Assembly (NCBI RefSeq): GCF_003096035.1
Contig: NZ_CP029186.1
Coordinates: 1,377,001 to 1,441,000 of the forward strand
Reading direction: 5' to 3'
Length of the DNA stretch: 64,000 nt
Origin: Flavobacterium album
Lineage (GTDB): Bacteria > Bacteroidota > Bacteroidia > Flavobacteriales > Flavobacteriaceae
Part shown: positions 8,070 through 36,280 of the stretch, piece after piece
Numbering within the stretch: the stretch's first letter is position 1
Layout of the letters: each line of letters opens with the position of its first letter
Position numbers and translations under genes: made by a program
The notes under the pieces: generated by a model
What the model was told of the DNA's origin: nothing
The model's database searches: none
Seen by the model: only the letters and a program-made list of their open reading frames with translations

Positions 8070-9017
8070 AAAAGTATAGCTCAGCCCTACACCCAGCATC
8101 TGCTTTAGCTGTATTTTCGGTCCAACCTGCACCACGGTACCATTCACTTCTTTGGTAGCTTTTACGTCATCGTCGTAAATAATATTGGTGCCGATGTTGG
8201 CTTTTACATATTGGTTTACAGTCATATCAAGCTGTAGCTGCCAGTTCACATCAATATTCCCGAAATTGTTCAGGTAATCGGTGTATAATGTTATCCGGTT
8301 GTCCAGCATTATATTCTTGAATACCTGCCTCTTTATATTATTGGTAACCAATATACCCACTTCTGTACGTGATCTTTTTCCGTGCGTGATGATATTCCCG
8401 TCGGCATCTCTTACCGCCTTATCTACCCCAAAAGCCCCTGCATCGGCAAGATCCTGGTTAAGCACGAGCGTTGTTTTGTCGGTCAGTGGCGAAAAATAAG
8501 CGGTCAGCCCAAGATCCTTGCGGATGTATTCACTCCCGACCCCAAGGAAGATGTAGGCAGGCGCAAAAGGCCCGGATATTTCTTTAGTAGTATTCGGATA
8601 CGCATAACCATTGGCAAACTGCGTCTGGAAATTGAATTTGGCACTGTAATACCAATTGGAAAGGGTGTCCTTCCGATAGCCGAATGTAGAGTTAAACTGC
8701 ACCTGGTCGTCAGTCTTGCGTGTTTCCTGGCCTTCCTGGCTGTTAAAGCCGTATTTCAGGATAAGCTCGTTGAGCCAGTTCACATTTTTCCGTACATACT
8801 TCCGTGTGAAATTGGCTTTTCCAAGTATTGTTACCGAGTTGTTACCCCCTACGCTCCAGTTGACAAACGATATCTGGTTGATGTCAAGCCCGAGCGCGTT
8901 TGTCTTTTCCCAGTAGGTAATAGAGTCGGGAACGGTAGTCGTGATAAGCACCTGCGAGCGGGATATTTGCGTAAAGGCAATAAGCAGTAAGGCGACAAAG
9001 CAGGCTTTAGTCTTCAT
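8067..9017 (-). CDS. DUF3078 domain protein, exported beta-rich
   Basis: The protein has 316 residues from the ATG at 9017, which opens a clean signal peptide (MKTKACFVALLLIAFTQISRSQ). A longer frame to 9107 overlaps the end of dxs and would place the signal internally, so I reject it. The mature part alternates short beta strands and aromatic residues (NWSVGGNNSVTILGKANFTRKY, NWLNELILKYGF), ending LGVGLSYTF, typical of outer-membrane barrel-like DUF3078 proteins. Function is unknown. The gene begins 43 bases after dxs on the same strand, an arrangement I recall as common in flavobacteria, and the two are probably co-transcribed. Confidence 0.85.
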   Translation of the reverse strand: MKTKACFVALLLIAFTQISRSQVLITTTVPDSITYWEKTNALGLDINQISFVNWSVGGNNSVTILGKANFTRKYVRKNVNWLNELILKYGFNSQEGQETRKTDDQVQFNSTFGYRKDTLSNWYYSAKFNFQTQFANGYAYPNTTKEISGPFAPAYIFLGVGSEYIRKDLGLTAYFSPLTDKTTLVLNQDLADAGAFGVDKAVRDADGNIITHGKRSRTEVGILVTNNIKRQVFKNIMLDNRITLYTDYLNNFGNIDVNWQLQLDMTVNQYVKANIGTNIIYDDDVKATKEVNGTVVQVGPKIQLKQMLGVGLSYTF

Positions 9018-22518: not shown

Positions 22519-22629
22519 TTCTCGACTGCGCTCGAACTGACAACGGTGTACCTTCGTAATTACGTATTACACTTATTTACGTTGTCACATCGAGCGCAGT
22601 CTGTCTGCCGACAAAGGCAGGTCGAGATG
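22519..22629. repeat. Family C palindrome (TCGAGCGCAGTC type) with a small hairpin insert
   Basis: The arm TCGACTGCGCTCGAACTGAC (22522) pairs with GTTGTCACATCGAGCGCAGTC-type DNA (22581-22601). The right arm is interrupted by TGTCTGCCGACAAAGGCAGG before GTCGAGAT resumes. A similar CTGCCGCCAAAGGCAG hairpin occurs at 12213-12231. The remaining gene-free DNA to 22829 holds one more hairpin, TGCCTTACAAA/TTTTGTAAGGC-like, at about 22711-22740. No protein-coding frame is supported. Confidence 0.7.
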
Positions 22630-22829: not shown

Positions 22830-23843
22830 ATGCCACATTATATAGCTAAGAAAATAGCACAAATTGCACCAATGCTTGAAGAAGCGCTGGTTGATCTCTT
22901 CGAATTGCACAGGGACGAACTTGTTGCACTGGATACGGTAGACGGCATTTCGTTCGACATCATCCCAAGCGCTTACCAAACCTATGCAGCCATCTCGTTC
23001 CGCCAGCAGTCGGATTACCTGAGCATGGATCCTTATAACGAAGACCGTGCCCTGATGTATAGCCCGGGCGACTGGGAATATTACAGCCTGCTGGAATACC
23101 GTACCTGCAGATCTGAAAAGTTCAGGGAGGCAGCAAAATATATATTTCGCATTTTCGAAGAAATCTACGAAGAGGTTGGGGAATATGACGGCATACAGCA
23201 GGACATCAACCACCTGCTTTATTCGTCTATAGCCGAAGGAGCCATGCAGCGCTCTGTCGCGGCAAAATTACAGGAATGCGGAGTCGATGCCCCGATAATT
23301 GAATACCGGTTTCAATATGGCTTTGACTATATGGTAATGGATGTGGACAGCCCGACACTGTTTAATTATTGCGATCTGGTAGTAGCTGACAGGATGACCA
23401 AAATGGCAGATAAAAAACTTATAGATACGGCCTTTTATAAAATGGATATTAAATCCAGCCCCGAAAAAGAGCTCAAGGAAATTGAAGCGGTTTTTGACGC
23501 TTTCCTTATTAAGCATGATTTCAAATTGAAATCCTCAGGCATACAGGAGATTGTCTATGAGAATGAATATTCGAAGCTGTTGTTTGATTTTGATAATTAT
23601 GGGACGCGATGGGGTTATATGGCACCCCCGGCTATTCTGTACATAAACACGGCAACAGGTAAACGGTATTCGGTAGCCTCACTGCTTGAAAAACTGTTTT
23701 TTACAGATTTTGAGGCATTGTTCAACAATTATTTCAGGATAAAGGAATTTGGTTATTATGAGTCCTACCACAAGATAATTACCGGGTACCTGGAAAATAT
23801 AATGAATGATAGAGCATTTTCCTGGGCAGAAGGGCTGAAATAA
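22830..23843 (+). CDS. Hypothetical protein, first gene of the accessory array
   Basis: This encodes 337 residues, soluble and acidic, with no signal peptide. Residues 1-180 are helical, with aromatic segments (AISFRQQSDYLSMDPY, GDWEYYSLLEY) that vaguely recall small immunity-type domains such as DUF4303. Residues 215-337 look like a second domain (DAFLIKHDFKLKSSGIQEIV). I cannot assign a function. It is the first gene of a rightward run of 13 genes with gaps of 49 bases or less and several overlaps, and the next gene starts four bases after its stop. Confidence 0.75.
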   Translation: MPHYIAKKIAQIAPMLEEALVDLFELHRDELVALDTVDGISFDIIPSAYQTYAAISFRQQSDYLSMDPYNEDRALMYSPGDWEYYSLLEYRTCRSEKFREAAKYIFRIFEEIYEEVGEYDGIQQDINHLLYSSIAEGAMQRSVAAKLQECGVDAPIIEYRFQYGFDYMVMDVDSPTLFNYCDLVVADRMTKMADKKLIDTAFYKMDIKSSPEKELKEIEAVFDAFLIKHDFKLKSSGIQEIVYENEYSKLLFDFDNYGTRWGYMAPPAILYINTATGKRYSVASLLEKLFFTDFEALFNNYFRIKEFGYYESYHKIITGYLENIMNDRAFSWAEGLK

Positions 23844-23847
23844 AATT

Positions 23848-24120
23848 ATGAGTATTAAAGAACATTGCGTAAAGATATACGAATTGCTGAAGGAGGCAGG
23901 AGAGTCGGGCTGGTCCAACGGTTTCAGGGGCCTGATCGCTGAGCTTGAAGCTAACGAGAACATATCGGTCTACCGGAAGATCATAAGCATTTATGGCGGT
24001 GCAGGGTCTTTCAACGACCTGGTGCTTTATAAAAACGGCGCTGTCTGTAGTGAAGAGAACAATGAACTGGACCGGCTCAGGAACGGGCTTTATAACAAGA
24101 TCGCAGAAAAATGGACTTAA
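23848..24120 (+). CDS. Small DUF6966-like protein
   Basis: This encodes 90 residues. The pattern LLKEAGESGWSNGFRGLI and later IYGGAGSFNDLVLYKNG matches my recollection of the small DUF6966-type family, in which GGMGSxNDLxL is the hallmark. Such proteins occur in immunity-type arrays and have no known activity. Cytosolic, no membrane segment. Its last ten bases overlap the start of the next gene, so translation is probably coupled. Confidence 0.65.
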   Translation: MSIKEHCVKIYELLKEAGESGWSNGFRGLIAELEANENISVYRKIISIYGGAGSFNDLVLYKNGAVCSEENNELDRLRNGLYNKIAEKWT

Positions 24121-24557
24121 AAGAATTGCACGACAAACTGGTATCGGAAGGCTGCAACCGGTTTTGCATTGAAGGCATAGGCAGGCAGGAGTTTGACGAT
24201 ATTGAACGGCTGGAAATGAACGATGGCAGGTGGGAGGTGCGTTATTACGAGCGTGGGCAGGCAGGGGAGACCCTTTTTTCTACCGCAGATATGGATGAGG
24301 CGATAAAGTATTATTACAATTATGTAATGAGCATACAACACAGGCACCTTATTGCCTTTAGCAGGTCGCAAAGCATTGTAGCTAAGTATAAGGCCAGGCT
24401 TGAAGCTCATGGTATTACTACAGTGGAGTACACGATACCGAATTATTCGGCTGCTGATGACCCTGTGTATGGATTGGTGGTTATCAACAAAGATATTTTT
24501 AAAGCGAGGGAATTGTTCGGGACAGTCCCCTACATTGATGACAACCTGAAAAGATAA
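24111..24557 (+). CDS. Hypothetical immunity-like protein
   Basis: This encodes 148 residues. The N-terminal part has the pattern of several small immunity families: ELHDKLVSEGCNRFCIEG, then DGRWEVRYYERGQ and a helix MDEAIKYYYNYVM. The C-terminal half (HRHLIAFSRSQSIVAKYKARLE) may form a second small domain. The W-E-V-x-Y-x-E-R-G signature is the basis of the comparison (Imm59-like), and this is tentative. It overlaps the preceding gene by ten bases. Confidence 0.65.
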   Translation: MDLKELHDKLVSEGCNRFCIEGIGRQEFDDIERLEMNDGRWEVRYYERGQAGETLFSTADMDEAIKYYYNYVMSIQHRHLIAFSRSQSIVAKYKARLEAHGITTVEYTIPNYSAADDPVYGLVVINKDIFKARELFGTVPYIDDNLKR

Positions 24558-24572
24558 GCAAAGATTAATACG

Positions 24573-25193
24573 ATGACAGACCGGGAACTTTTTGAAATAT
24601 TGAAGGAGCGCATTGAGCAGGGCGATTGCCGCACGGAACAGGTTTCGGCGATTTTATCGGAGTATAAAAACTCAGGAGGTAAACAGGAAACTGCCGAAAG
24701 CCTGGCAGAAGAACTCGTTGCTGTCTTTTCAGGCGATGAGGAATTGCAGGAGCGCGCCTACGACATCTTTGATATTGTTACCGGATGGTGCCCGCCTGCA
24801 CTGAAGGTTTGGGAAAAGAAAAAGATATGGGCATTAACCGACGGTATGCGTTTTGAAGATGAAGAAACCGGGGTGGTCTTCAACCACTTTTCATTCTGCG
24901 AGTTTATAAAGCACATCATGACAGCGTATGCCGGCATGAGTTACGAAGAGGCGGACGACAAAGTGAAGAATTCTTTCCTGGCTTATGTTCCGCGTACTTT
25001 AGATCATGTCATGTTTTTTTCGCACGAACTGGACTATCACTGGGCAATGCTGCTGGCACATGGCGATATGTACTGGACAAGGGGAATTCCCAGCGATTAC
25101 AATGGCTTTAGTGAAGAATATCTTTCCTGGGCTAAGGCGATAAGGCAAAAATATAACCTCAAAGAGTCGTATTTGTATTACGACAAAATATAG
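24573..25193 (+). CDS. Hypothetical protein
   Basis: This encodes 206 residues, acidic, probably mainly helical. It starts MTDRELFEILKERIEQGDC, very like the start of the gene at 25879 (MTDKDLYNRICDLQ), which hints at a common N-terminal module. The middle holds GWCPPALKVWEKKKIWAL and the end RGIPSDYNGFSEEYLSWA. No catalytic pattern or export signal is visible. It lies 15 bases after the previous gene in the same operon. Confidence 0.7.
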   Translation: MTDRELFEILKERIEQGDCRTEQVSAILSEYKNSGGKQETAESLAEELVAVFSGDEELQERAYDIFDIVTGWCPPALKVWEKKKIWALTDGMRFEDEETGVVFNHFSFCEFIKHIMTAYAGMSYEEADDKVKNSFLAYVPRTLDHVMFFSHELDYHWAMLLAHGDMYWTRGIPSDYNGFSEEYLSWAKAIRQKYNLKESYLYYDKI

Positions 25194-25202
25194 CACCTGA
25201 AT

Positions 25203-25640
25203 ATGGCAGCCGAATTGAACATTTACAGTATTTATAAGCTCAGGAATGAGGACAAATATTACCTGCTGCGGACAGAAAGGCCGGGTTTTTCGAATGCCTC
25301 ACAAATGGAAGAGGATTTAGCGGAAGCGGCAGAAGAGGAGCAACGGAACCGTATGCTGGAACAGGTCAGCCCTGCCGGTTTTGATTTCATTGGCGAATTG
25401 CAAAACGCTCCGATAGGTGATGCGCTTTATACCGAAAATGGAAAAGCAAATTTGGAAATTTATTACATGGAAACGGAGTTTGGCCATCCCTGGATCGTTT
25501 TGGGCAATGCACCTTCGGAAGAGGCGTTTCTGGCTGAGCTGAATGATGACGAAGACCTGTTACGTTTAAAGCCTGTGGGGAAGCCGGTAAAGATCCGGGT
25601 AGCATATTTAACGGAAAACGATTTTAATTTAAACACATGA
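25203..25640 (+). CDS. Hypothetical acidic protein
   Basis: This encodes 145 residues, strongly acidic. It opens with a beta-rich stretch (NIYSIYKLRNEDKYYLLRTE) followed by an E-rich helix, and a beta-rich C-terminal half (EIYYMETEFGHPWIVLGNAP). No motif is recognised. The stop overlaps the next start (ATGA), so the two products are probably made in step. Confidence 0.65.
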   Translation: MAAELNIYSIYKLRNEDKYYLLRTERPGFSNASQMEEDLAEAAEEEQRNRMLEQVSPAGFDFIGELQNAPIGDALYTENGKANLEIYYMETEFGHPWIVLGNAPSEEAFLAELNDDEDLLRLKPVGKPVKIRVAYLTENDFNLNT

Positions 25641-25879
25641 TACAGAAACCATCATTCGTAACAAGCCTTACCATTGGAGAGGAAACCCACGAGATAAAAG
25701 TTTACGGGGACGTAGACAAGACAACAGATTTTATTTATTACACTTTCGCCCTGAATGACGAAAATATGATCGTATTGTCAAAATTTGATGGTGATGAATG
25801 GAGAGTTGCCAATACCATCAGGATGAACAACGATCTCGCGAACTTATTAGGAAAAATAATTGATAGCAATAACAAATAA
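25637..25879 (+). CDS. Small hypothetical protein
   Basis: This encodes 80 residues, predicted as mostly beta strands: SFVTSLTIGEETHEIKVYGD, FIYYTFALNDENMIVLSK and EWRVANTIRMNND. Its start overlaps the previous stop by four bases and its stop shares one base with the next ATG, so it is embedded in a tightly coupled series. Role unknown. Confidence 0.65.
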   Translation: MIQKPSFVTSLTIGEETHEIKVYGDVDKTTDFIYYTFALNDENMIVLSKFDGDEWRVANTIRMNNDLANLLGKIIDSNNK

Positions 25880-26373
25880 TGACAGATAAAGATCTCTATA
25901 ACCGTATATGCGATTTACAAGCTACCGATGTAAGCCTCGAAACCTATTTGCTTTCGCTTCTGAAGCTTGTTGAAAAAGAAAAGTCAAGGGAAGATGTTCC
26001 TGCCGAATTGTTCCTGCAAATTTTACAGGATGCTTTTACATCAGAACCGGCAAAATTTAATCCCGAGTGGCTGAAAATTAAAAAAGCCCCAAAAGAAAAT
26101 CCCAACGCAAGCGGTTACGATTATGCCGTAGCCGTTATCCAATTCCAGATATCGGATCTCCGTAAAATGAAAGGGAAGCAACTGGACGACCCTTATAAGA
26201 CCATGGGTATTGATTCTGAAACCGGCGAACGATGGTATAATTTTGACCCGATGGGCAATTTAGAATGTGGGGCAAGATGCTGTGTTGATGGCGGTAGTGA
26301 TGAAAATGAGTATGAATTACTGGATTGGGGCTTTTTGGGGCAGCTTCTCGAAATGGGAAGGATCTACGAATAA
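25879..26373 (+). CDS. Hypothetical protein of a recurrent Bacteroidota family
   Basis: This encodes 164 residues. The C-terminal half RWYNFDPMGNLECGARCC, with a final LGQLLEMGRIYE, is a pattern I recall from many small uncharacterised Bacteroidota proteins in immunity-type neighbourhoods. Three cysteines are clustered in ECGARCC and could bind metal, but this is speculation. The N-terminus resembles that of the gene at 24573. Cytosolic, same operon. Confidence 0.7.
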   Translation: MTDKDLYNRICDLQATDVSLETYLLSLLKLVEKEKSREDVPAELFLQILQDAFTSEPAKFNPEWLKIKKAPKENPNASGYDYAVAVIQFQISDLRKMKGKQLDDPYKTMGIDSETGERWYNFDPMGNLECGARCCVDGGSDENEYELLDWGFLGQLLEMGRIYE

Positions 26374-26388
26374 AAACATATAAAAACA

Positions 26389-26949
26389 ATGGACAAATAC
26401 GCAGCACTAACAGCACAGGGCAGGGGAGCCTACCTCGATGCTTTAACAAACATCGGCTGGTTCAGCCTCCCTCATAATGACAGGGCCAAAACAGAAGAGC
26501 ACATTACCGGTATTGATGACAGCAACTATTTCTTTTATGTCCTGGCGCATATTACGCGGGATGCCGAAGGCTTTGATAATGGCAGGGAGTATAAGGAGCT
26601 TTTTGAGGAAATAGCCGCTTTAAGTAGCGTGAAAATAGTGTCGGCAGATTTTGAATACCATAATGAAGGGTTTGGTATAGATGAGCTCACCGGCACTGTA
26701 GTAACCGAGAACCGCACTTATGAATGCCCTTTGGAAGAACTGATGGGCTGGCTCGACAGCGATTTTGTCGATTGGTTTGTCAACCAGGAAGTATTGGCCG
26801 GTGAAAATATTGAAGGCCGCTTTTTTACGCTTCCGGCTACCGACCAAATGGCGCAGTATTCTTTTATGCCGCAGGAAATGTACGACAAGGCCATTGCCGC
26901 AGGGATCCTGCCGGACGACCCTGAATATTTTATGCGGGATTTTGAATAA
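26389..26949 (+). CDS. Hypothetical protein
   Basis: This encodes 186 residues. Features are an N-terminal helical part, a DDSNYFFYVLAHITRD segment and a beta-rich KIVSADFEYHNEGFGIDEL region. It ends with a region (FFTLPATDQMAQYSFMPQEM) typical of soluble alpha/beta proteins. No family was recognised. It follows the previous gene by 15 bases and is in turn followed by a 49-base gap, the largest inside the array. Confidence 0.7.
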   Translation: MDKYAALTAQGRGAYLDALTNIGWFSLPHNDRAKTEEHITGIDDSNYFFYVLAHITRDAEGFDNGREYKELFEEIAALSSVKIVSADFEYHNEGFGIDELTGTVVTENRTYECPLEELMGWLDSDFVDWFVNQEVLAGENIEGRFFTLPATDQMAQYSFMPQEMYDKAIAAGILPDDPEYFMRDFE

Positions 26950-26998
26950 ATACGATGACAAATCAAATTAGTAATAAAACTTCAGTAACAGGTTATAA

Positions 26999-27664
26999 AT
27001 GAAAAATCTCAATTTTATCGAATCGGCTGCCCACAACCGTGAAAGGCAGAACAAATCCCTGAGGAATATGATGGTGCTTGTACTGGTATGCGCCATCCCT
27101 GCCGCCATTTCGAGGCTGTTCTTTTGGGGATATACCCACAAGGCTATGGTTACCTCGTGGAGATATAGACATGTAAGTTACATAACCGACGTGGGGTGGC
27201 CAGCAACCGTATATGGCTATGGGAGCTTTTTTGCTATCGCGTTTGCCTTGTTTTATATTTTCATCCGCTATAGGTACAACCCAAAACAGCCTTCATTCGG
27301 GGTAACCGAAGACGGTATTTTCATCAACCAGCAAATGCTTCGCAATGCGTTTGTTCCCTGGAGTAATATACAAAAGGCCGAATTGCTGGGGCCTGAAGCA
27401 AGCCCATTCATGCGATTGACATTTAAGGATTATAAGGCCCTTATTAAAGGCCAGCCGTTTCTTCTAAAATCCATTGCGAAGGCCAACCTGAAGGATGGTC
27501 CCGTAATGAGCATCACAAAAGGCGATACAGTTGGCGACATACGGAAGATGTATGAAATAATCAACGAGAAGGGATTTAACAGAAGCAATACGGAACCGCA
27601 CACGATGCTGAGCTTCACAGATAAGTATGGCGATAACCTGAAGATTTCGGCAAATCAAAAATAA
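26999..27664 (+). CDS. Two-helix membrane protein with PH-like cytosolic domain
   Basis: This encodes 221 residues. Two membrane segments lie at about residues 25-45 and 75-92, with a short loop between. The remaining 125 residues form a predicted beta-sandwich (FGVTEDGIFINQQMLRNAFVPWSNIQKAELLG), the usual start of bacterial PH-like domains (STM3941-like) that follow paired helices. It is the only clear integral membrane protein of the rightward array. Function unknown. Confidence 0.7.
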   Translation: MKNLNFIESAAHNRERQNKSLRNMMVLVLVCAIPAAISRLFFWGYTHKAMVTSWRYRHVSYITDVGWPATVYGYGSFFAIAFALFYIFIRYRYNPKQPSFGVTEDGIFINQQMLRNAFVPWSNIQKAELLGPEASPFMRLTFKDYKALIKGQPFLLKSIAKANLKDGPVMSITKGDTVGDIRKMYEIINEKGFNRSNTEPHTMLSFTDKYGDNLKISANQK

Positions 27665-27697
27665 AAGCATAAAAATAAACCAACAAAATAATACAAA

Positions 27698-28105
27698 ATG
27701 AAAAAACTATTAATAACCCTTATTGCCCTTGGAGGCACAGCGCTTATGAGCGGACAAACCATCGAATCCGGAAGTCACAATACCTCAGGCTACATTAAAA
27801 GCGACGGTACTATTGAGGACAGAAGCCATTCGACCGTAGGCTACATCAAGAGCGATGGCACCATTGAGAACAGGAGCCACAGCACGATAGGCTACATAAA
27901 AAGCGACGGTACTATCGAGGACAGGAGCCACTCGACCGTAGGCTATGTGAAGAGCGATGGTACAGTAGAGGACAGGAGCCACAGCACCCTGGGCTATGTG
28001 AAGAGCGACGGCACAGTGGAAAACAGAAGCCACGGCACCATAGGCTATGCCCGCGGCGTAAAGAAAGAATGGGCTGCCGTAACGTTCTTCTTCTTTAAAT
28101 TTTAA
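27698..28105 (+). CDS. Exported protein with five 17-residue GYxKSDGT repeats
   Basis: This encodes 135 residues. A signal peptide (MKKLLITLIALGGTALMSGQ) is followed by five near-identical 17-residue units of the form T-x-GY-I/V-KSDGT-I/V-E-D/N-RSHS, i.e. 51-base tandem repeats over 27783-28041. A partial sixth unit and the tail WAAVTFFFFKF complete it. It resembles what I recall of the five-fold beta-flower fold family, where each unit gives one blade and the phenylalanine tail closes the ring; the assignment is tentative. The Asp/Asn position runs D, N, D, D, N. The only exported protein of the rightward array. Confidence 0.75.
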   Translation: MKKLLITLIALGGTALMSGQTIESGSHNTSGYIKSDGTIEDRSHSTVGYIKSDGTIENRSHSTIGYIKSDGTIEDRSHSTVGYVKSDGTVEDRSHSTLGYVKSDGTVENRSHGTIGYARGVKKEWAAVTFFFFKF

Positions 28106-28116
28106 TACAGGGCAGT

Positions 28117-29346
28117 ATGAATACTACTGATAAACCATTTGAGATACGCTTTTACAATGAAGAAATGTTTGATAATGCGATGCTTTTCATGGAGGCCGCT
28201 GCAGACTGCCTGTTGGGTGAAATGAGCAGCAGGGTGATGCTGGAAAACCATACAGCTGAGCATACCGTCATGGGGTCGGGAACGCCATCTAATACCCGCG
28301 ATGTGAATATTGGGTCGGGATTTTATGAGGTAATGAAACAGGCATTTGCCGAAACCCCTGCTGATGCGTACCTTACATTTATTATCGAAACGAAAATAAA
28401 AACAGCCGAAACCCCGGCAGGGCAGCTGGAGGCAACGCACAGGGTAAGGGTGAAGAACCCGATGATTGGCACAAAGCGCGAAGACTGGCCGGAATGGGAG
28501 GACCCGCAGTTTGAAATACCGGAGCTGCTGTACGATGAAGCCCCAAAGTGGCAGGATGATTTTACCATCAGCATTACACCGCAATATAGCGAAGGCGACA
28601 TGTTTGACTTCCTTGACGAGACAGCACATTTTGTGCTGACGGTGCTTTCGGGCGCAGCGATCAAAAAGTTTGATGTTACTGCGAAGCTGATGCACGAGTG
28701 GCGCGAAGAAAAGCTGTCGGTTGAGGTAAACCCAAAGGCCAAAGGGCATGAGATTACCATTGATCTTTCAGCCAATTTACTTGATCAGGTAAAGGAAATG
28801 GGAAGCTACAGTCACGGCGAATATGAAAAATTTGATTATTTTTTTGAGATTGAGATAACCGGTGCCGACGACAAAAAGCACAAACGCAAGGTATCGGTGC
28901 AGCTGCCGAACCCGTATTACGAAGGGATTGCTGCTGAAAAGGACATTGCCCGTGATGTACTGGCAGAGGTATTTAAAAGAAAATACAATGAGGACATTGC
29001 CGAGCTGGACATTGAAAGCCAAGAGGGCTGGTGGGCCTGGAGAAAGGATGGGGTTTCGTTCCAGTACGGCTGGAAGGACAATGCCATCATGCTTTACCGC
29101 TACCTGGGTGCCGAAGATTATGACGCCGACGCCGACGAAGTCTCAGAAGCTATAGATGAAATTAATGAGTTTGCCGCTGGTACAGCGGAGTTGGTATATG
29201 TAGACAATTACTTTGTGTTAAAGTATGAATTCAGCCCGGAGGAATTGGATGCGGACGACCTGGAAAAGAAACTTGATGAGTTTGAGGAATTAGCCGATTC
29301 GGATGAGGTGTCTGGGTTCCTGGCGGCATATGAAGGGGAAAGTTAA
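28117..29346 (+). CDS. Hypothetical acidic protein
   Basis: This encodes 409 residues, the largest product of the rightward array, soluble and acidic. Residues 1-265 are beta-rich and may form two similar domains (ADAYLTFIIETKIKTAETPA; KKFDVTAKLMHEWREEKLS). The last 130 residues (ARDVLAEVFKRKYNEDI, VSFQYGWKDNAIMLYRYL, FVLKYEFSPEELDADDL) have the strand-helix alternation of YbjN-like chaperone folds, which is only an impression. No catalytic residues stand out. Confidence 0.7.
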   Translation: MNTTDKPFEIRFYNEEMFDNAMLFMEAAADCLLGEMSSRVMLENHTAEHTVMGSGTPSNTRDVNIGSGFYEVMKQAFAETPADAYLTFIIETKIKTAETPAGQLEATHRVRVKNPMIGTKREDWPEWEDPQFEIPELLYDEAPKWQDDFTISITPQYSEGDMFDFLDETAHFVLTVLSGAAIKKFDVTAKLMHEWREEKLSVEVNPKAKGHEITIDLSANLLDQVKEMGSYSHGEYEKFDYFFEIEITGADDKKHKRKVSVQLPNPYYEGIAAEKDIARDVLAEVFKRKYNEDIAELDIESQEGWWAWRKDGVSFQYGWKDNAIMLYRYLGAEDYDADADEVSEAIDEINEFAAGTAELVYVDNYFVLKYEFSPEELDADDLEKKLDEFEELADSDEVSGFLAAYEGES

Positions 29347-29365
29347 TTTTTAAAATTAGGAGATC

Positions 29366-29728
29366 ATGAAAAATATACAATTAGCACAGCTCGATAAATA
29401 CAACGGCAACCCGAACTACGAGCATATAGAAGGCAATATTTACAAGGACCTGGAGGAAGATCATTATGTCTTCGCGCTGAGCTATGAACTTGAAGAAGAG
29501 GAAGATTCGCAATACCCGTTGGAAGACATACTGGATGAATTTTTCCTGCATGTATCCGACTTTATAGATGAAGACAGGTTTAATACCGAAAGTGAAATTA
29601 CCCTGGAATTGGGCGGTGACCTTAACGACATAAAAGAAGCCATAGGCACAATTATCGGGAAGAGGGTATATAATGAAGAATATGACGATGAACAAGGCGT
29701 TACAAGGGTAAGGCTGGTGATAGAATAA
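29366..29728 (+). CDS. Small very acidic hypothetical protein
   Basis: This encodes 120 residues with an exceptionally high Asp/Glu content (YELEEEEDSQYPLEDILDEF). A high negative charge is common among immunity proteins for basic nuclease toxins and among nucleic-acid mimics; neither can be shown here. Predicted alpha/beta, no membrane segment. Lies 19 bases after the preceding gene. Confidence 0.65.
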   Translation: MKNIQLAQLDKYNGNPNYEHIEGNIYKDLEEDHYVFALSYELEEEEDSQYPLEDILDEFFLHVSDFIDEDRFNTESEITLELGGDLNDIKEAIGTIIGKRVYNEEYDDEQGVTRVRLVIE

Positions 29729-29744
29729 TTAAGAGCAATTTACC

Positions 29745-30143
29745 ATGAATACTACAAAACGCGACTACGTAAAAGCGAACCTTTCGCCCCTGAATAAAAT
29801 ACTCAACAAGCACGGCGGGTTGGAGAACAAGATAAAGCTGACCAAACTAAAGCCGGACCAAATCGATTTCCTATACGAGCTGATGATGGTACATCTTGAA
29901 GGCTACATAGAATATGCCCGTGAAGCGATATTCGATTTCCATCGTGAGGAACTGCAGCGCTACCTGGACATGCCGCAGTATAAGGACTGGAAAATGCCGG
30001 TAGAAATACACGGTATCAAATTACCCGAAAAATTTGAAGCCGGCTGCGAATGGGAACTACAGATAGGGAGGCCTTGGTTTGGTGCAACACAAATGGGCCT
30101 GATCATGAAAGGCTGGGAAATAGACGACGAGTATATCGTATGA
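29745..30143 (+). CDS. Hypothetical protein, last gene of the rightward array
   Basis: This encodes 132 residues. It has a helical N-terminal part (NKILNKHGGLENKIKLTKLK) and a C-terminal half with aromatic residues (EWELQIGRPWFGATQMGLIM). No family recognised. Its stop codon touches a 14-base-pair hairpin that also serves the convergent gene, so the operon ends here. Confidence 0.7.
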   Translation: MNTTKRDYVKANLSPLNKILNKHGGLENKIKLTKLKPDQIDFLYELMMVHLEGYIEYAREAIFDFHREELQRYLDMPQYKDWKMPVEIHGIKLPEKFEAGCEWELQIGRPWFGATQMGLIMKGWEIDDEYIV

Positions 30144-30939: not shown

Positions 30940-31890
30940 TTAGTTATTGCTTAGCAATGCAATTTTCTTAATGTGCGATAAGCTTTCAAACCTCGAAGCC
31001 TGGCTTCCCCATTCGTTCGGACTTGAGAAGGTGAACGAAAGTGAATCGATATGAATGCTCCTCCAGTTGTCCGGGTTACTGAAATCAAGGTCCCTGTGCC
31101 CGTTGATGTGGTTGATCCTGAATAACCCAACTTTGGTATCGCCAAAAAAGTCGTCGGTCATGCGCACTACTTTATTGTGCATCTGGCCCAGGCTGTAAAT
31201 AGCATACACTTCCATACCCTCAAGCTCGAACTCTATATCATCATGGTTGCCGGAAAGGATCAGTTCCCTTTGCTCAGGTGTAAAATCGATAGGCTCATCC
31301 TCGCCTTCAAGTTCTATAACACTATTATAAATGCTTGCGTTAGCTTCTTCTTCAACATCTTCCTCTTCTTCATATTCAGGTTCCTGCCTGCGGCCATTGT
31401 CGTAAACAGTTATCTCCTGCGTAATGGATGGGTCGAAAAGGTCGAGCGTTTCCTTAATGTCTACCTCGCATTCCAGGAAAAAGGTAATACCGTTTCTTTG
31501 TGCGTTCTCAGGTGTATCACCACCCCAGTTTGCCAGTGCTGCGGGAACGTCCATGTCCTTAACCCAGTAGCCGTAAGAAACCTCACCGCCGCCTTCTACT
31601 GTACATGGAAATTCCTTTACCCATTCGCCGTTGCGCTCTGTTGTGGCACATCTCTCGGCAGTACGGGTTTCAGTTCCCAGCTCGATCTTCTCCTCAACGT
31701 TATTAACGGTGCGCTTAGCGTAAAAGGTACCTTTAACGCCTATCACGGTTACGGGATCTTTACCCGACTTAACATTTACCGTTGCCTTGATCATCGGGTC
31801 GAAATACGGCCACGGGTTCTCTACGTATAAAAATTCAAGCTTTACGCCGGTAACGCCCACCATGCCCTTTATCTTGTCAAAAAATCCCAT
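30940..31890 (-). CDS. Hypothetical protein with Spo0M/arrestin-like N-terminus
   Basis: This encodes 316 residues. The opening MGFFDKIKGMVGVTGVKLEF, followed by strand-rich MIKATVNVKSGKDPVTVIGVKG, resembles Spo0M-type arrestin folds, which begin with a short amphipathic helix and then beta sheets. An E-rich linker (about residues 172-186, EPEYEEEEDVEEEA) precedes a C-terminal domain of about 120 residues. The comparison is by eye and weak. Only nine bases separate it from the small secreted protein upstream. Confidence 0.6.
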   Translation of the reverse strand: MGFFDKIKGMVGVTGVKLEFLYVENPWPYFDPMIKATVNVKSGKDPVTVIGVKGTFYAKRTVNNVEEKIELGTETRTAERCATTERNGEWVKEFPCTVEGGGEVSYGYWVKDMDVPAALANWGGDTPENAQRNGITFFLECEVDIKETLDLFDPSITQEITVYDNGRRQEPEYEEEEDVEEEANASIYNSVIELEGEDEPIDFTPEQRELILSGNHDDIEFELEGMEVYAIYSLGQMHNKVVRMTDDFFGDTKVGLFRINHINGHRDLDFSNPDNWRSIHIDSLSFTFSSPNEWGSQASRFESLSHIKKIALLSNN

Positions 31891-33565: not shown

Positions 33566-34867
33566 CTATCGTTCCCTTTTTTCAATGTATTTGTCTATCC
33601 ACTCTTCAAAAGAATCGGCTACATGGTCATACTCTGGGCCGCTGTTTTTGCGTAGTATGATCTGGCCATGCTTTCCGCCTTCCGACGGGTCAAGGTCCAT
33701 AAAATGGATGTCGCCGCTGCCATCGCCCAAAAGAGGTATCCACAGCGGGTTCCAGTACAATGGCTTTACTTCGTCTATGGCATCTTCTTCAGGGATTTCG
33801 CCGCCAAATTCCTTGTTCAGGCTGTCCCACAGGTTCCATTCCTGCTTTATTTTCGATAGTGGGAAAAGCCCTTCCGAGCCTTCTGCAAGCAATCCGGAAT
33901 TGAAAACATTTCCGGTATCCTGCCCGTCATGCACCAGGTAAAATTCCCTGAGGATTTCCGGCAGCTCTGTGCCCACCGTTTTTTCAAACTCCTGCCACTC
34001 ACTTAGTGACACAGGCTCATTGAACGTATTTATACTGCCGGGGTTTTCCCTTTCGGCAAGCAGCTCTATCAGGTCCCATTTCAGTTTTACCCTGTCAGCT
34101 ATAGCACCCCATTGTTTAGTGGTCCTTATATATTTCAGGATATACCATATGTAGCCGCCTAAAAGTGTTATAGAATGGTCATCGCTTCCTTCGGCGTTGT
34201 ATTTTTGCCTTAAGCCTTCCAGCGTATCGGCATACGGATCGATGGCATATTCCAAAAGGGCCTTATTATCCTGGTGGTCTTCAAGGAGCTTGAATATATC
34301 GGCTTGGGTATCAAGGCCCGATGCCATTATAATATTGTTTACCGCAGTTGCTGTCGGTTTGTCCCATTCTTTAAAATTTATCAGGAATGAGCGGGCTCCT
34401 ATCTGGGAGTCGAATATCTTGTACAGCACATCGGCAAAAGCTATCATCACTTTAGCGCCTTCCTTATCGTTCTCTTCAATGAGCTCTGCAAGGCCCCTGG
34501 CCTCATTCGATACCACAAGGTAGGGGAAGCCCATTGCCATCATAAAGCCGCTTATATCCACCTGGTTATGGTTGATGAACTGGTCTATGAATATGCTGAT
34601 GCCTTTCAGGGTATACTTGTTTATGAAATCTTCCATCAGCGAAAGGTGCCTTGGCAGCACTTCCATGACCTTTTCCATAGTGTCGGACAGCTCATCGTGC
34701 GTATAGAATTTTTCATAGACCATTATCGACAGAACGCGCTCCATTATTTCCTGGTCCACGGCAAGGACGGCTTTATCGGTACGGTAAGCTTCCCTTGTCA
34801 TCTCTATTCCTTCTGTAAAATCGTTCAGCGATGATGACTGTAGTTTTTCTATGATAGTGTCTCTCAT
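33566..34867 (-). CDS. SMI1/KNR4 (SUKH) domain protein with long helical N-terminus
   Basis: This encodes 433 residues. Residues about 275-425 match SUKH-1: SLSEWQEFEKTVGTELPEIL, REFYLVHDGQD, a turn into LFPLSKIKQEWNLWDSL, then WIPLLGDGSGDIHFMDLDP and a final DSFEEWIDKY. The N-terminal 270 residues are helical with no known domain. Family members act as immunity proteins or as regulators of protein assembly. It belongs to the leftward arm, 24 bases after the LRR gene. The stop lies next to a repeat element, so the C-terminus may have been altered slightly. Confidence 0.85.
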   Translation of the reverse strand: MRDTIIEKLQSSSLNDFTEGIEMTREAYRTDKAVLAVDQEIMERVLSIMVYEKFYTHDELSDTMEKVMEVLPRHLSLMEDFINKYTLKGISIFIDQFINHNQVDISGFMMAMGFPYLVVSNEARGLAELIEENDKEGAKVMIAFADVLYKIFDSQIGARSFLINFKEWDKPTATAVNNIIMASGLDTQADIFKLLEDHQDNKALLEYAIDPYADTLEGLRQKYNAEGSDDHSITLLGGYIWYILKYIRTTKQWGAIADRVKLKWDLIELLAERENPGSINTFNEPVSLSEWQEFEKTVGTELPEILREFYLVHDGQDTGNVFNSGLLAEGSEGLFPLSKIKQEWNLWDSLNKEFGGEIPEEDAIDEVKPLYWNPLWIPLLGDGSGDIHFMDLDPSEGGKHGQIILRKNSGPEYDHVADSFEEWIDKYIEKRER

Positions 34868-34891: not shown

Positions 34892-36280
34892 TTACCACTT
34901 CTCAAAAGGATACTTTTCATAAATATCAACTACCATAACTTCACACAGGCTTATGAACTTTTCAGTATCGAACCAATCGAATGGCTCCAGCTTTTTCCGC
35001 ATCTTGTCATAGTCTTCCGGGGTAGTGGTCTCGTCTATATATTTAAAGGATTTCAGCGCCTTGTTCACTTGCTTGAGCTTTTCAGGGGCGTTGTCGTCTA
35101 TATAGTTATAATAGGTTCCCAGCGACCTGCCATGCTCATCTTCATAATAGCATTTGGTAACTGCAATGGCAAGTTCCGGGAAATAGTTTGGCGCTTCATT
35201 GGCCTTATATTTTGAAATAAGCTCTTTCACCAAAGGAATGTTCTCAAATTCCTTTATAAAATAGCTGATGGCGTTATACAGCACTTCATATTCATTATCC
35301 GGCATGAACTCAGCCTTTATGTCATCTTTATATATTTGCGGGAGGTTGGGCAGCGCAAAAATGCTTTCCGGTATGGTTTTTATTTCAGGGTTATCTTCTT
35401 TCGAAAGGCCAATGTTTTTTAGCTTTACAAAATTGCCGATAGCTTCAGGCACCGCAGTAAGGCGTGTGTTATAAAGGGTAAACCAGGTTATTTCTGTCAG
35501 CGAAAAAATATCGTCCGGCAGTGTTGTTACCGGCATCTTGATAACAAGTTCTTTCAAGTTTAATAATTTGCCTGCTCCTTCCGGAAACACATCCAGGTTT
35601 GTCCTGATGTTTAATTTTTGCAGCGATGGCTGGTCAAATACAAACGACGGGAATTTGTCAAAGTCGCCACCTATCTTAATCTCGTAGATGTTAGGCATGT
35701 CGATAGTGTCAAAATCAAAATGCACCTTTCCTTCTGTACGGCAGGTAAGGCTCGCTAAAGATGGTGCGAGTTGCGGCACAACGTCCCACACCAGCTGCGC
35801 TACGCGCTCGCTAAGTTCGTCGCCAATATACAGGCGCACGATATTTGGGTCGTTATTGTCATACAATTCATTAAGAAGGTAATATTTTATCTCCTCATCG
35901 CTCGCCTTTTCAAGGAAATGCTCGCGCATGTCCCTCACAGTATGGCTTACGATAGAGAGATACTTTAAAAACTGTAGCGTATTGAAGCCTTCAATTTTCT
36001 CAAGTTCCGGCACGTCGATGGCCAGGTTCTTCATGGCCGAATAATTGCTGTAATCCCTTTTAGAAACTACCTTTAACGCCTGCTTAACCGGCTCCCCGCC
36101 AATCTTGCCTAACATGGTCTTAAAATTTTTCTTCAGGTCTTTATCATAAAGGGTGGTAATCACGGCAAGCAGCATTTCGTCAACGCCTTCCGGTTTTTGT
36201 TCTGGGTTGGCCGCAAGGAAGTCGTATATCTTGCGCGCGCCAAACCCCCGTATATGGGAAAATATTTCTTTGTAATTCAT
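34892..36280 (-). CDS. Leucine-rich-repeat protein
   Basis: This encodes 462 residues. The LRR portion spans roughly residues 195-320, e.g. LQKLNIRTNLDVFPEGAGKL, LKELVIKMPVTTLPDDIFSL, and LTAVPEAIGNFVKLKNIGLS, i.e. about four or five units of some 23 residues. N- and C-terminal regions are helical and unassigned. No signal peptide, so it is an intracellular binding scaffold. It is flanked by a hypothetical gene 16 bases upstream and the SMI1 gene 24 bases downstream, so all three are probably one transcript. Confidence 0.8.
   Translation of the reverse strand: MNYKEIFSHIRGFGARKIYDFLAANPEQKPEGVDEMLLAVITTLYDKDLKKNFKTMLGKIGGEPVKQALKVVSKRDYSNYSAMKNLAIDVPELEKIEGFNTLQFLKYLSIVSHTVRDMREHFLEKASDEEIKYYLLNELYDNNDPNIVRLYIGDELSERVAQLVWDVVPQLAPSLASLTCRTEGKVHFDFDTIDMPNIYEIKIGGDFDKFPSFVFDQPSLQKLNIRTNLDVFPEGAGKLLNLKELVIKMPVTTLPDDIFSLTEITWFTLYNTRLTAVPEAIGNFVKLKNIGLSKEDNPEIKTIPESIFALPNLPQIYKDDIKAEFMPDNEYEVLYNAISYFIKEFENIPLVKELISKYKANEAPNYFPELAIAVTKCYYEDEHGRSLGTYYNYIDDNAPEKLKQVNKALKSFKYIDETTTPEDYDKMRKKLEPFDWFDTEKFISLCEVMVVDIYEKYPFEKW

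What the first reader, a model, noticed from the sequence alone, without database searches (positions are those of the whole stretch)
22830..30143. Thirteen-gene tightly packed array of uncharacterised small proteins (possible poly-immunity or undescribed system)
Thirteen co-directional genes with gaps of 49 bases or less, several ATGA/TAATG overlaps, one terminal terminator and no internal one. The products are mostly small, soluble, acidic, without catalytic motifs; three resemble families from immunity-type neighbourhoods (DUF6966-like, WEVxYxERG, NFDP-LECGA). Only one is a clear membrane protein and one is exported. No toxin, nuclease, T6SS/T9SS effector or mobile gene is in the window. 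Sequence shows packing and charge; the immunity role is inference.
Basis: partly seen in the sequence, partly recalled or inferred. Interest (0 to 1): 0.7.

Follow-up and report, generated by a model that had tools for sequence, protein, structure and literature searches.

The report
Flavobacterial cluster of probable toxin antidotes

Summary
The thirteen-gene co-directional array is real (gaps -10 to 49 bases) and is best read as a heterogeneous polyimmunity locus: a stock of antidotes to polymorphic toxins of competitors. Content varies: the same chromosomal site in Flavobacterium sp. MFBS3-15 holds homologues of all 13, but as 20 genes, with seven extra ones, the g9-g10 pair moved, and g1 present only as its C-terminal domain. 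In the opened loci elsewhere the families occur singly. Relatives of g2 (DUF6966) overlap the end of one shared, unnamed ~135-aa toxin tip in 4 of 6 opened plasmid loci (remnant in a fifth), on different N-termini. The C-half of g4 has relatives directly behind an Rhs-DUF3990 toxin; a weak match to the N-half overlaps the end of an Rhs tip, and a better one lies in an Imm19 array, so g4 looks like two antidotes fused. A g12 relative sits in an LXG-toxin region; a g3 relative is fused to SUKH-1. DUF3990 was not found in this genome. Nine of 13 genes (g1, g5-g11, g13) have no outside link and are called immunity by position only. Nothing was tested experimentally. New member of a known kind; the useful new parts are the DUF6966/toxin-tip pairing and the g4 assignment.

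The parts
22830..23843 (+). g1, 337 aa, fusion of an unknown N-domain (1-204) with a C-domain (205-332) that is a separate gene in the relative
   Evidence: Alignment begins at Met1 of the 136-aa gene L002:5490-5900, 60% identity
23848..24120 (+). g2, 90 aa, DUF6966 (PF22294); predicted antidote to an unnamed ~135-aa toxin-tip domain
   Evidence: Pfam E 2.9e-17; relatives overlap the end of the same toxin tip in 4 of 6 opened loci, remnant in a 5th
24111..24557 (+). g3, 148 aa; a relative is fused to SUKH-1 in a cyanobacterial plasmid protein
   Evidence: 1 of 3 cyanobacterial hits scanned; two chromosomal relatives show no toxin nearby by eye
24573..25193 (+). g4, 206 aa, predicted two-domain antidote: N-half (1 to about 84) and C-half (about 80-206) each found alone elsewhere, in both cases next to Rhs toxins in at least one locus
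   Evidence: C-half: Cupriavidus L020 behind Rhs-DUF3990. N-half: weak match in G501/L028 overlapping the end of an Rhs tip and G408/L027 in a run with Imm19
25203..25640 (+). g5, 145 aa, presumed immunity by position only
   Evidence: homologue in L002 60%; no plasmid match
25637..25879 (+). g6, 80 aa, presumed immunity by position only
   Evidence: homologue 69%; no plasmid match
25879..26373 (+). g7, 164 aa, presumed immunity by position only
   Evidence: homologue 87%; 0 of 295 other genomes sampled from the order; no plasmid match
26389..26949 (+). g8, 186 aa, presumed immunity by position only
   Evidence: homologue 74%; no plasmid match
26999..27664 (+). g9, 221 aa, basic membrane protein (by eye); moves together with g10
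   Evidence: pair sits before g1 in the relative; no plasmid match
27698..28105 (+). g10, 135 aa, exported (by eye) repeat protein, Bflower_2 (PF21785); moves together with g9
   Evidence: Pfam E 1.4e-46; repeats spaced 51 bases; not searched in plasmids
28117..29346 (+). g11, 409 aa, acidic, presumed immunity or accessory by position only
   Evidence: homologue 86%; 0 of 198 other genomes sampled from the genus; no plasmid match
29366..29728 (+). g12, 120 aa; relative in an LXG-toxin (type VII) region of an Enterococcus plasmid
   Evidence: E 3e-15; neighbours WXG100, LXG, DUF4176, AbiH
29745..30143 (+). g13, 132 aa, presumed immunity by position only
   Evidence: homologue 88%; no plasmid match
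30141..30180 (.). hairpin spanning the convergent stop codons, probable two-way terminator
   Evidence: -26.9 kcal/mol, z -5.75
33566..34867 (-). SUKH-1 (SMI1/KNR4) protein, 433 aa, immunity-type gene on the other strand; no match in the relative's 77.8-kb stretch
   Evidence: Pfam E 1.6e-21
34892..36280 (-). leucine-rich-repeat-like protein, 462 aa, same block; no match in the relative's 77.8-kb stretch
   Evidence: LRR hits E 7e-5, below cut-off

Best explanation
A heterogeneous polyimmunity locus. One transcript (inferred from packing) makes a set of mostly acidic antidote proteins, each of which would bind and block the toxic C-terminal domain of a polymorphic toxin (Rhs, CDI-type, LXG or similar) delivered by a rival. 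At least some are orphans: the cell keeps the antidote without the matching toxin. The stock changes by gain, loss, moving and fusion of genes at one chromosomal site. Shown by sequence: the array, its variable content, the separate occurrence of its families elsewhere, the toxin-antidote adjacency for relatives of g2 and g4, and no DUF3990 found in this genome. Inferred: binding, neutralisation, co-transcription, and the immunity role of the nine genes without an outside link (g1, g5-g11, g13).
For: Variable content at a conserved site: 13 genes here, 20 in Flavobacterium sp. MFBS3-15, all 13 shared, 7 extra genes interleaved (one a TPM-domain protein), g9-g10 moved, g1 split; flanks collinear at about 80%. 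g2 family overlapping the end of a shared toxin tip in 4 of 6 opened plasmid loci (15 records matched), 39-aa remnant in a fifth, on different N-termini, i.e. polymorphic. g4 C-half directly behind VgrG-like - Rhs - DUF3990, with a second copy. g4 N-half: a free 77-aa ORF in a Bacteroidota genome that overlaps the end of an Rhs-tip ORF and stops where the N-half ends (34% over 58 aa, E 8e-5), and a gene (49% over 84 aa) in a run with Imm19 (E 1.6e-23) and a SUKH-like gene (E 0.014, below cut-off). g12 relative in an LXG-toxin region. g3 relative fused to SUKH-1. DUF3990 not found in this genome or the relative, with 2 of 14 control genomes positive. A TPM-domain gene, the family of one extra gene of the relative, lies directly behind the Rhs gene of this genome. 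SUKH-1 gene in the nearby minus-strand block.
Against: Only two genomes carry the array, and 11 of 13 shared genes keep their relative order. Nine of 13 genes have no outside link; g9 and g10 (membrane and exported) do not look like ordinary cytoplasmic antidotes. Two chromosomal g3 relatives and one g4 C-half relative (G344) have no toxin nearby, judged by eye from ORF lists, and the opened Acinetobacter DUF6966 gene has none. The g4 N-half link to an Rhs tip rests on a weak match. The g12 relative is not directly behind the LXG gene. No recombinase was seen. Faster divergence of the array than of its surroundings is only a trend (median identity 75.7% of 13 against 86.3% of 28, P 0.08). The relative's extra genes that look SUKH- or SuFu-like by eye have no Pfam match at E 0.1. 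The structure model of g1 was too poor to use. No protection assay exists.
Confidence: 0.85

Rival explanations
1. An undescribed multi-component system (complex or pathway) whose 13 parts work together.
For: All 13 shared by the two genomes that have the locus; 11 of 13 in the same relative order.
Against: Seven genes without counterpart here are inserted among them in the relative, g9-g10 moved, g1 split. In the opened loci outside the site only one of the families is found at a time (tblastn at E 1e-3), and relatives of g2 and g4 stand behind toxins instead.
Confidence: 0.06
2. A mixed accessory island in which a few antidotes (g2, g3, g4, g12) sit among unrelated small genes with other jobs (g9-g10 envelope, g11 and others unknown).
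For: Only g2, g3, g4 and g12 have outside links; g9-g10 moved as a pair; eight products had no plasmid match, g10 not tried.
Against: Extra genes in the relative include a TPM-domain protein, and packing and orientation are those of published polyimmunity loci.
Confidence: 0.09

Closest known systems
Heterogeneous polyimmunity loci (Zhang et al. 2012, PMC3482391; passages seen)
   Same: Uninterrupted, co-directional, small gaps, mutually unrelated small proteins, content differing between close relatives, no toxin in the run; Bacteroidetes are among the phyla listed
   Different: Mostly proteins without a family name; no recombinase seen in the ORFs scanned; g9 and g10 look membrane-bound and exported
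rAID / AID orphan immunity clusters of Bacteroidales (abstract and introduction of PMC12247911)
   Same: Co-oriented short genes, some of them orphan antidotes by inference
   Different: No tyrosine recombinase among the window ORFs scanned and no repeated intergenic motif; no T6SS VipB found in this genome
Polyimmunity proteins (same 2012 paper, passages)
   Same: g1 and g4 each join two units, of which one (g1) or both (g4) are found separately elsewhere
   Different: No Pfam or NCBIfam immunity model recognises the units

Membership tests
Heterogeneous polyimmunity locus | Immunity genes not interrupted by toxin genes | tested here: met
   No toxin-family Pfam hit above cut-off among the 13
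Heterogeneous polyimmunity locus | Same orientation and small gaps | tested here: met
   13 of 13 on +, gaps -10 to 49; 20 of 20 in the relative, gaps -10 to 118
Heterogeneous polyimmunity locus | Several unrelated immunity families | tested here: inconclusive
   Relatives of g2 and g4 directly behind toxins, of g12 in a toxin region, of g3 fused to SUKH-1; nine of 13 not shown. The 13 share no BLASTP similarity with each other at E 0.01
Heterogeneous polyimmunity locus | Number and type of genes differ between close relatives | tested here: met
   13 against 20 genes, a pair moved, one gene split; two genomes only, not strains of one species
Heterogeneous polyimmunity locus | Recombinase adjacent (in several cases) | tested here: not met
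   None among the 24 flanking ORFs scanned (4, 10, 10) nor among the 3; the source gives it for several cases, not as required
Heterogeneous polyimmunity locus | Products neutralise toxins | not testable with these tools
   Needs co-expression assays
rAID system | Tyrosine recombinase and conserved intergenic motifs | tested here: not met
[quoted passage not shown]
Orphan immunity (g4) | Cognate toxin absent from the genome | tested here: inconclusive
   DUF3990, the partner of the C-half: 0 of 2 genomes (G000, G794), 2 of 14 controls positive; the partner of the N-half was not searched for
Orphan immunity (g2) | Cognate toxin absent from the genome | not tested

The most novel reading that the evidence does not exclude
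DUF6966 proteins are the antidotes of a so far unnamed toxin-tip family carried on Rhs, CDI-adjacent and other N-termini, and this locus builds bivalent antidotes by fusing single ones: g4 joins the antidotes of two different Rhs toxins, and g1 joins two units of which one is separate in the relative.
Probability: 0.55. Interest if true: 0.58.

Novelty: new member of a known kind. Interest (0 to 1): 0.48.

Why it matters
It gives a testable function to DUF6966, pairs it with a toxin tip that no Pfam or NCBIfam model recognised, offers g4 as a two-in-one antidote, and lists further candidate antidotes whose toxins can be looked for.

Tried and rejected
g7: 1 of 296 of the order. g4: 4 of 345 of the phylum, own included. 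g3: 3 of 395, own included; the two others have no toxin beside them by eye. Plasmid tblastn without a match: g1, g5, g6, g7, g8, g9, g11, g13; g10 not tried. Viral contigs: no relative of g3, g4, g13. PADLOC, 10 of the 13 given: best E 0.021; NCBIfam, 10 of the 13 given: nothing near cut-off. Solved structures: no hit below E 0.2 for g2, g3, g7, g11; g10 matches a pneumococcal surface protein (E 3.4e-6). T6SS VipB: none in this genome or the relative, only E. coli of the 14 controls rang, so a divergent system could be missed. TANFOR: nothing rang anywhere, uninformative (passages of PMC7073777). Rejected: a weak toxin-tip match in L031 (E 0.002) lies inside an 889-aa ORF that looks like an outer-membrane receptor and is taken as chance. 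The 28 background genes include at least one probably spurious ORF (8382-8990 +). Paper searches: 'DUF6966' 0 papers, beta-flower with immunity 0, Flavobacter with immunity gene and acquired interbacterial defense 0; this library only.
Full report
OBSERVATION. The array is as described. Thirteen + strand genes, g1 to g13, run from 22830 to 30143 with gaps of -10 to 49 bases. They lie between a divergent MFS transporter gene on the left and a convergent gene on the right; a strong hairpin spans the two stops (-26.9 kcal/mol, z -5.75). Eleven of 13 products are acidic. Only g2 (DUF6966, E 2.9e-17) and g10 (Bflower_2, E 1.4e-46) pass a Pfam cut-off. The window lies in a 3.98-Mb single-contig genome that the tool puts in the same genus as Flavobacterium sp. 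MFBS3-15, the named relative.

VARIABLE CONTENT AT ONE SITE. One other genome was found with the locus (L002; the same contig reached as G794). Homologues of all 13 are there at 60-88% identity, between flanks that are collinear at about 80% nucleotide identity, with gaps. But the row there has 20 genes, all on one strand: seven have no counterpart here (x477, x188, x294, x228, x209, x77, x499), and the g9-g10 pair stands before g1 instead of after g8. g1 of the window is an in-frame fusion: its residues 205-332 align from the first Met of a free-standing 136-aa gene. Eleven of the 13 keep their relative order, which speaks for the other side. The locus is rare: 2 of 299 sampled genus genomes have the flank gene 30940-31890.

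TOXIN LINK OF g2. tblastn of g2 against 72,556 plasmid records gave 15 records; six were opened. The reading frame directly upstream of the DUF6966 gene ends in the same ~135-aa domain in four: Rahnella (an Rhs-type frame), Chimaeribacter, Paraburkholderia (beside an annotated CDI locus) and Rhodoferax, with pairwise identities of about 47-64% and, in all four, a stop that overlaps the DUF6966 start. Pantoea keeps 39 residues of the domain in the same place (E 1.7e-8). The opened Acinetobacter plasmid has none. The Chimaeribacter and Rhodoferax proteins align only in this C-terminal domain. A shared C-terminal tip on different N-termini followed by the same small gene is the pattern of a polymorphic toxin with its antidote. 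The domain has no Pfam match up to E 10 and no NCBIfam match up to E 1. Its conserved R-A-G motif recalls ADP-ribosyltransferase-type toxins, but that is recollection, not a test.

TOXIN LINKS OF g4. The C-half of g4 matches two tandem genes (38% and 37.5%), the first starting 30 bases after a 1591-aa Rhs ORF in Cupriavidus campinensis, itself behind a VgrG-like ORF (VgrG by eye). The Rhs tip is DUF3990 (E 3.8e-14), a family that Pfam places in the ADP-ribosyltransferase clan (passage of PMC7955679) and that has been noted on a predicted Rhs protein of Serratia (passage of PMC4524185). DUF3990 was not found in this genome or the relative, while 2 of 14 control genomes rang. The N-half matches (49% over 84 aa) a gene in genome G408 that lies in a minus-strand run with Imm19 (E 1.6e-23) and a SUKH-like gene (E 0.014, below cut-off). 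More weakly (34% over 58 aa, E 8e-5) it matches a free 77-aa ORF in genome G501 that ends at the same boundary and overlaps by 22 bases an ORF with an Rhs core end (by eye) and a C-terminal extension (L028:8297-9433). In genome G344 the C-half stands alone without a visible toxin. So both halves exist separately, and g4 is probably a bivalent antidote.

OTHER LINKS. A g12 relative (42%, E 3e-15) is in a type VII secretion-like region of an Enterococcus plasmid with FtsK, WXG100, LXG (E 5.1e-7), DUF4176 and, next, AbiH. It is not directly behind the LXG gene. A g3 relative is the N-terminal part of a cyanobacterial protein whose later part is SUKH-1 (E 1e-7); three cyanobacterial hits were found, one was scanned. 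One extra gene of the relative is a TPM-domain protein, and a TPM-domain gene directly follows the Rhs gene of the window's own genome (26% identity between the two). A nearby block on the other strand of the window holds a SUKH-1 gene and an LRR-like gene. In the opened loci outside the site no two of the 13 families were found together (tblastn at E 1e-3).

WHAT IT IS. These features fit the published description of heterogeneous polyimmunity loci (passages of PMC3482391): uninterrupted by toxins, co-directional, small gaps, content differing between close relatives. The recombinase described for several cases is not seen among the ORFs scanned, which together with the lack of repeated intergenic motifs argues against filing it as an rAID system as defined in PMC12247911 (abstract and introduction read). 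The mechanism I commit to is protection of the cell by binding of each antidote to the toxic tip delivered by a rival, at 0.85 for the locus as a whole. For single genes I would put g2 and g4 highest, g3 and g12 next, and g9-g10 lowest. Binding and rescue are inference.

LIMITS.

Noticed in passing
   Followed up: partly
L009:10054-14459 (G000:C1 about 3361054-3365459): The genome's one clear Rhs gene (DUF6443 and RHS repeat) with a glycine-rich C-terminus, directly followed by a TPM-domain gene: a candidate toxin-antidote pair.
   Followed up: partly
L008:9008-9943: Weak Rhs-core match (E 8.1e-5) with a short ORF and a small lipoprotein-like ORF behind it, perhaps a displaced toxin tip with its antidote (by eye).
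   Followed up: no
25879-26373, 26999-27664, 28117-29346, 29745-30143: g7, g9, g11 and g13 have lower dS to the relative (0.49-0.68) than the other array genes with a value (1.12-2.29): recent exchange or codon bias.
   Followed up: no
27758-28012: Repeats spaced 51 bases in the beta-flower gene g10; the protein matches a pneumococcal surface protein in the PDB (E 3.4e-6).
   Followed up: no
22524-22601: Inverted repeat (22-base arms, 91% complementary) in the gap between the MFS gene and g1.
   Followed up: no
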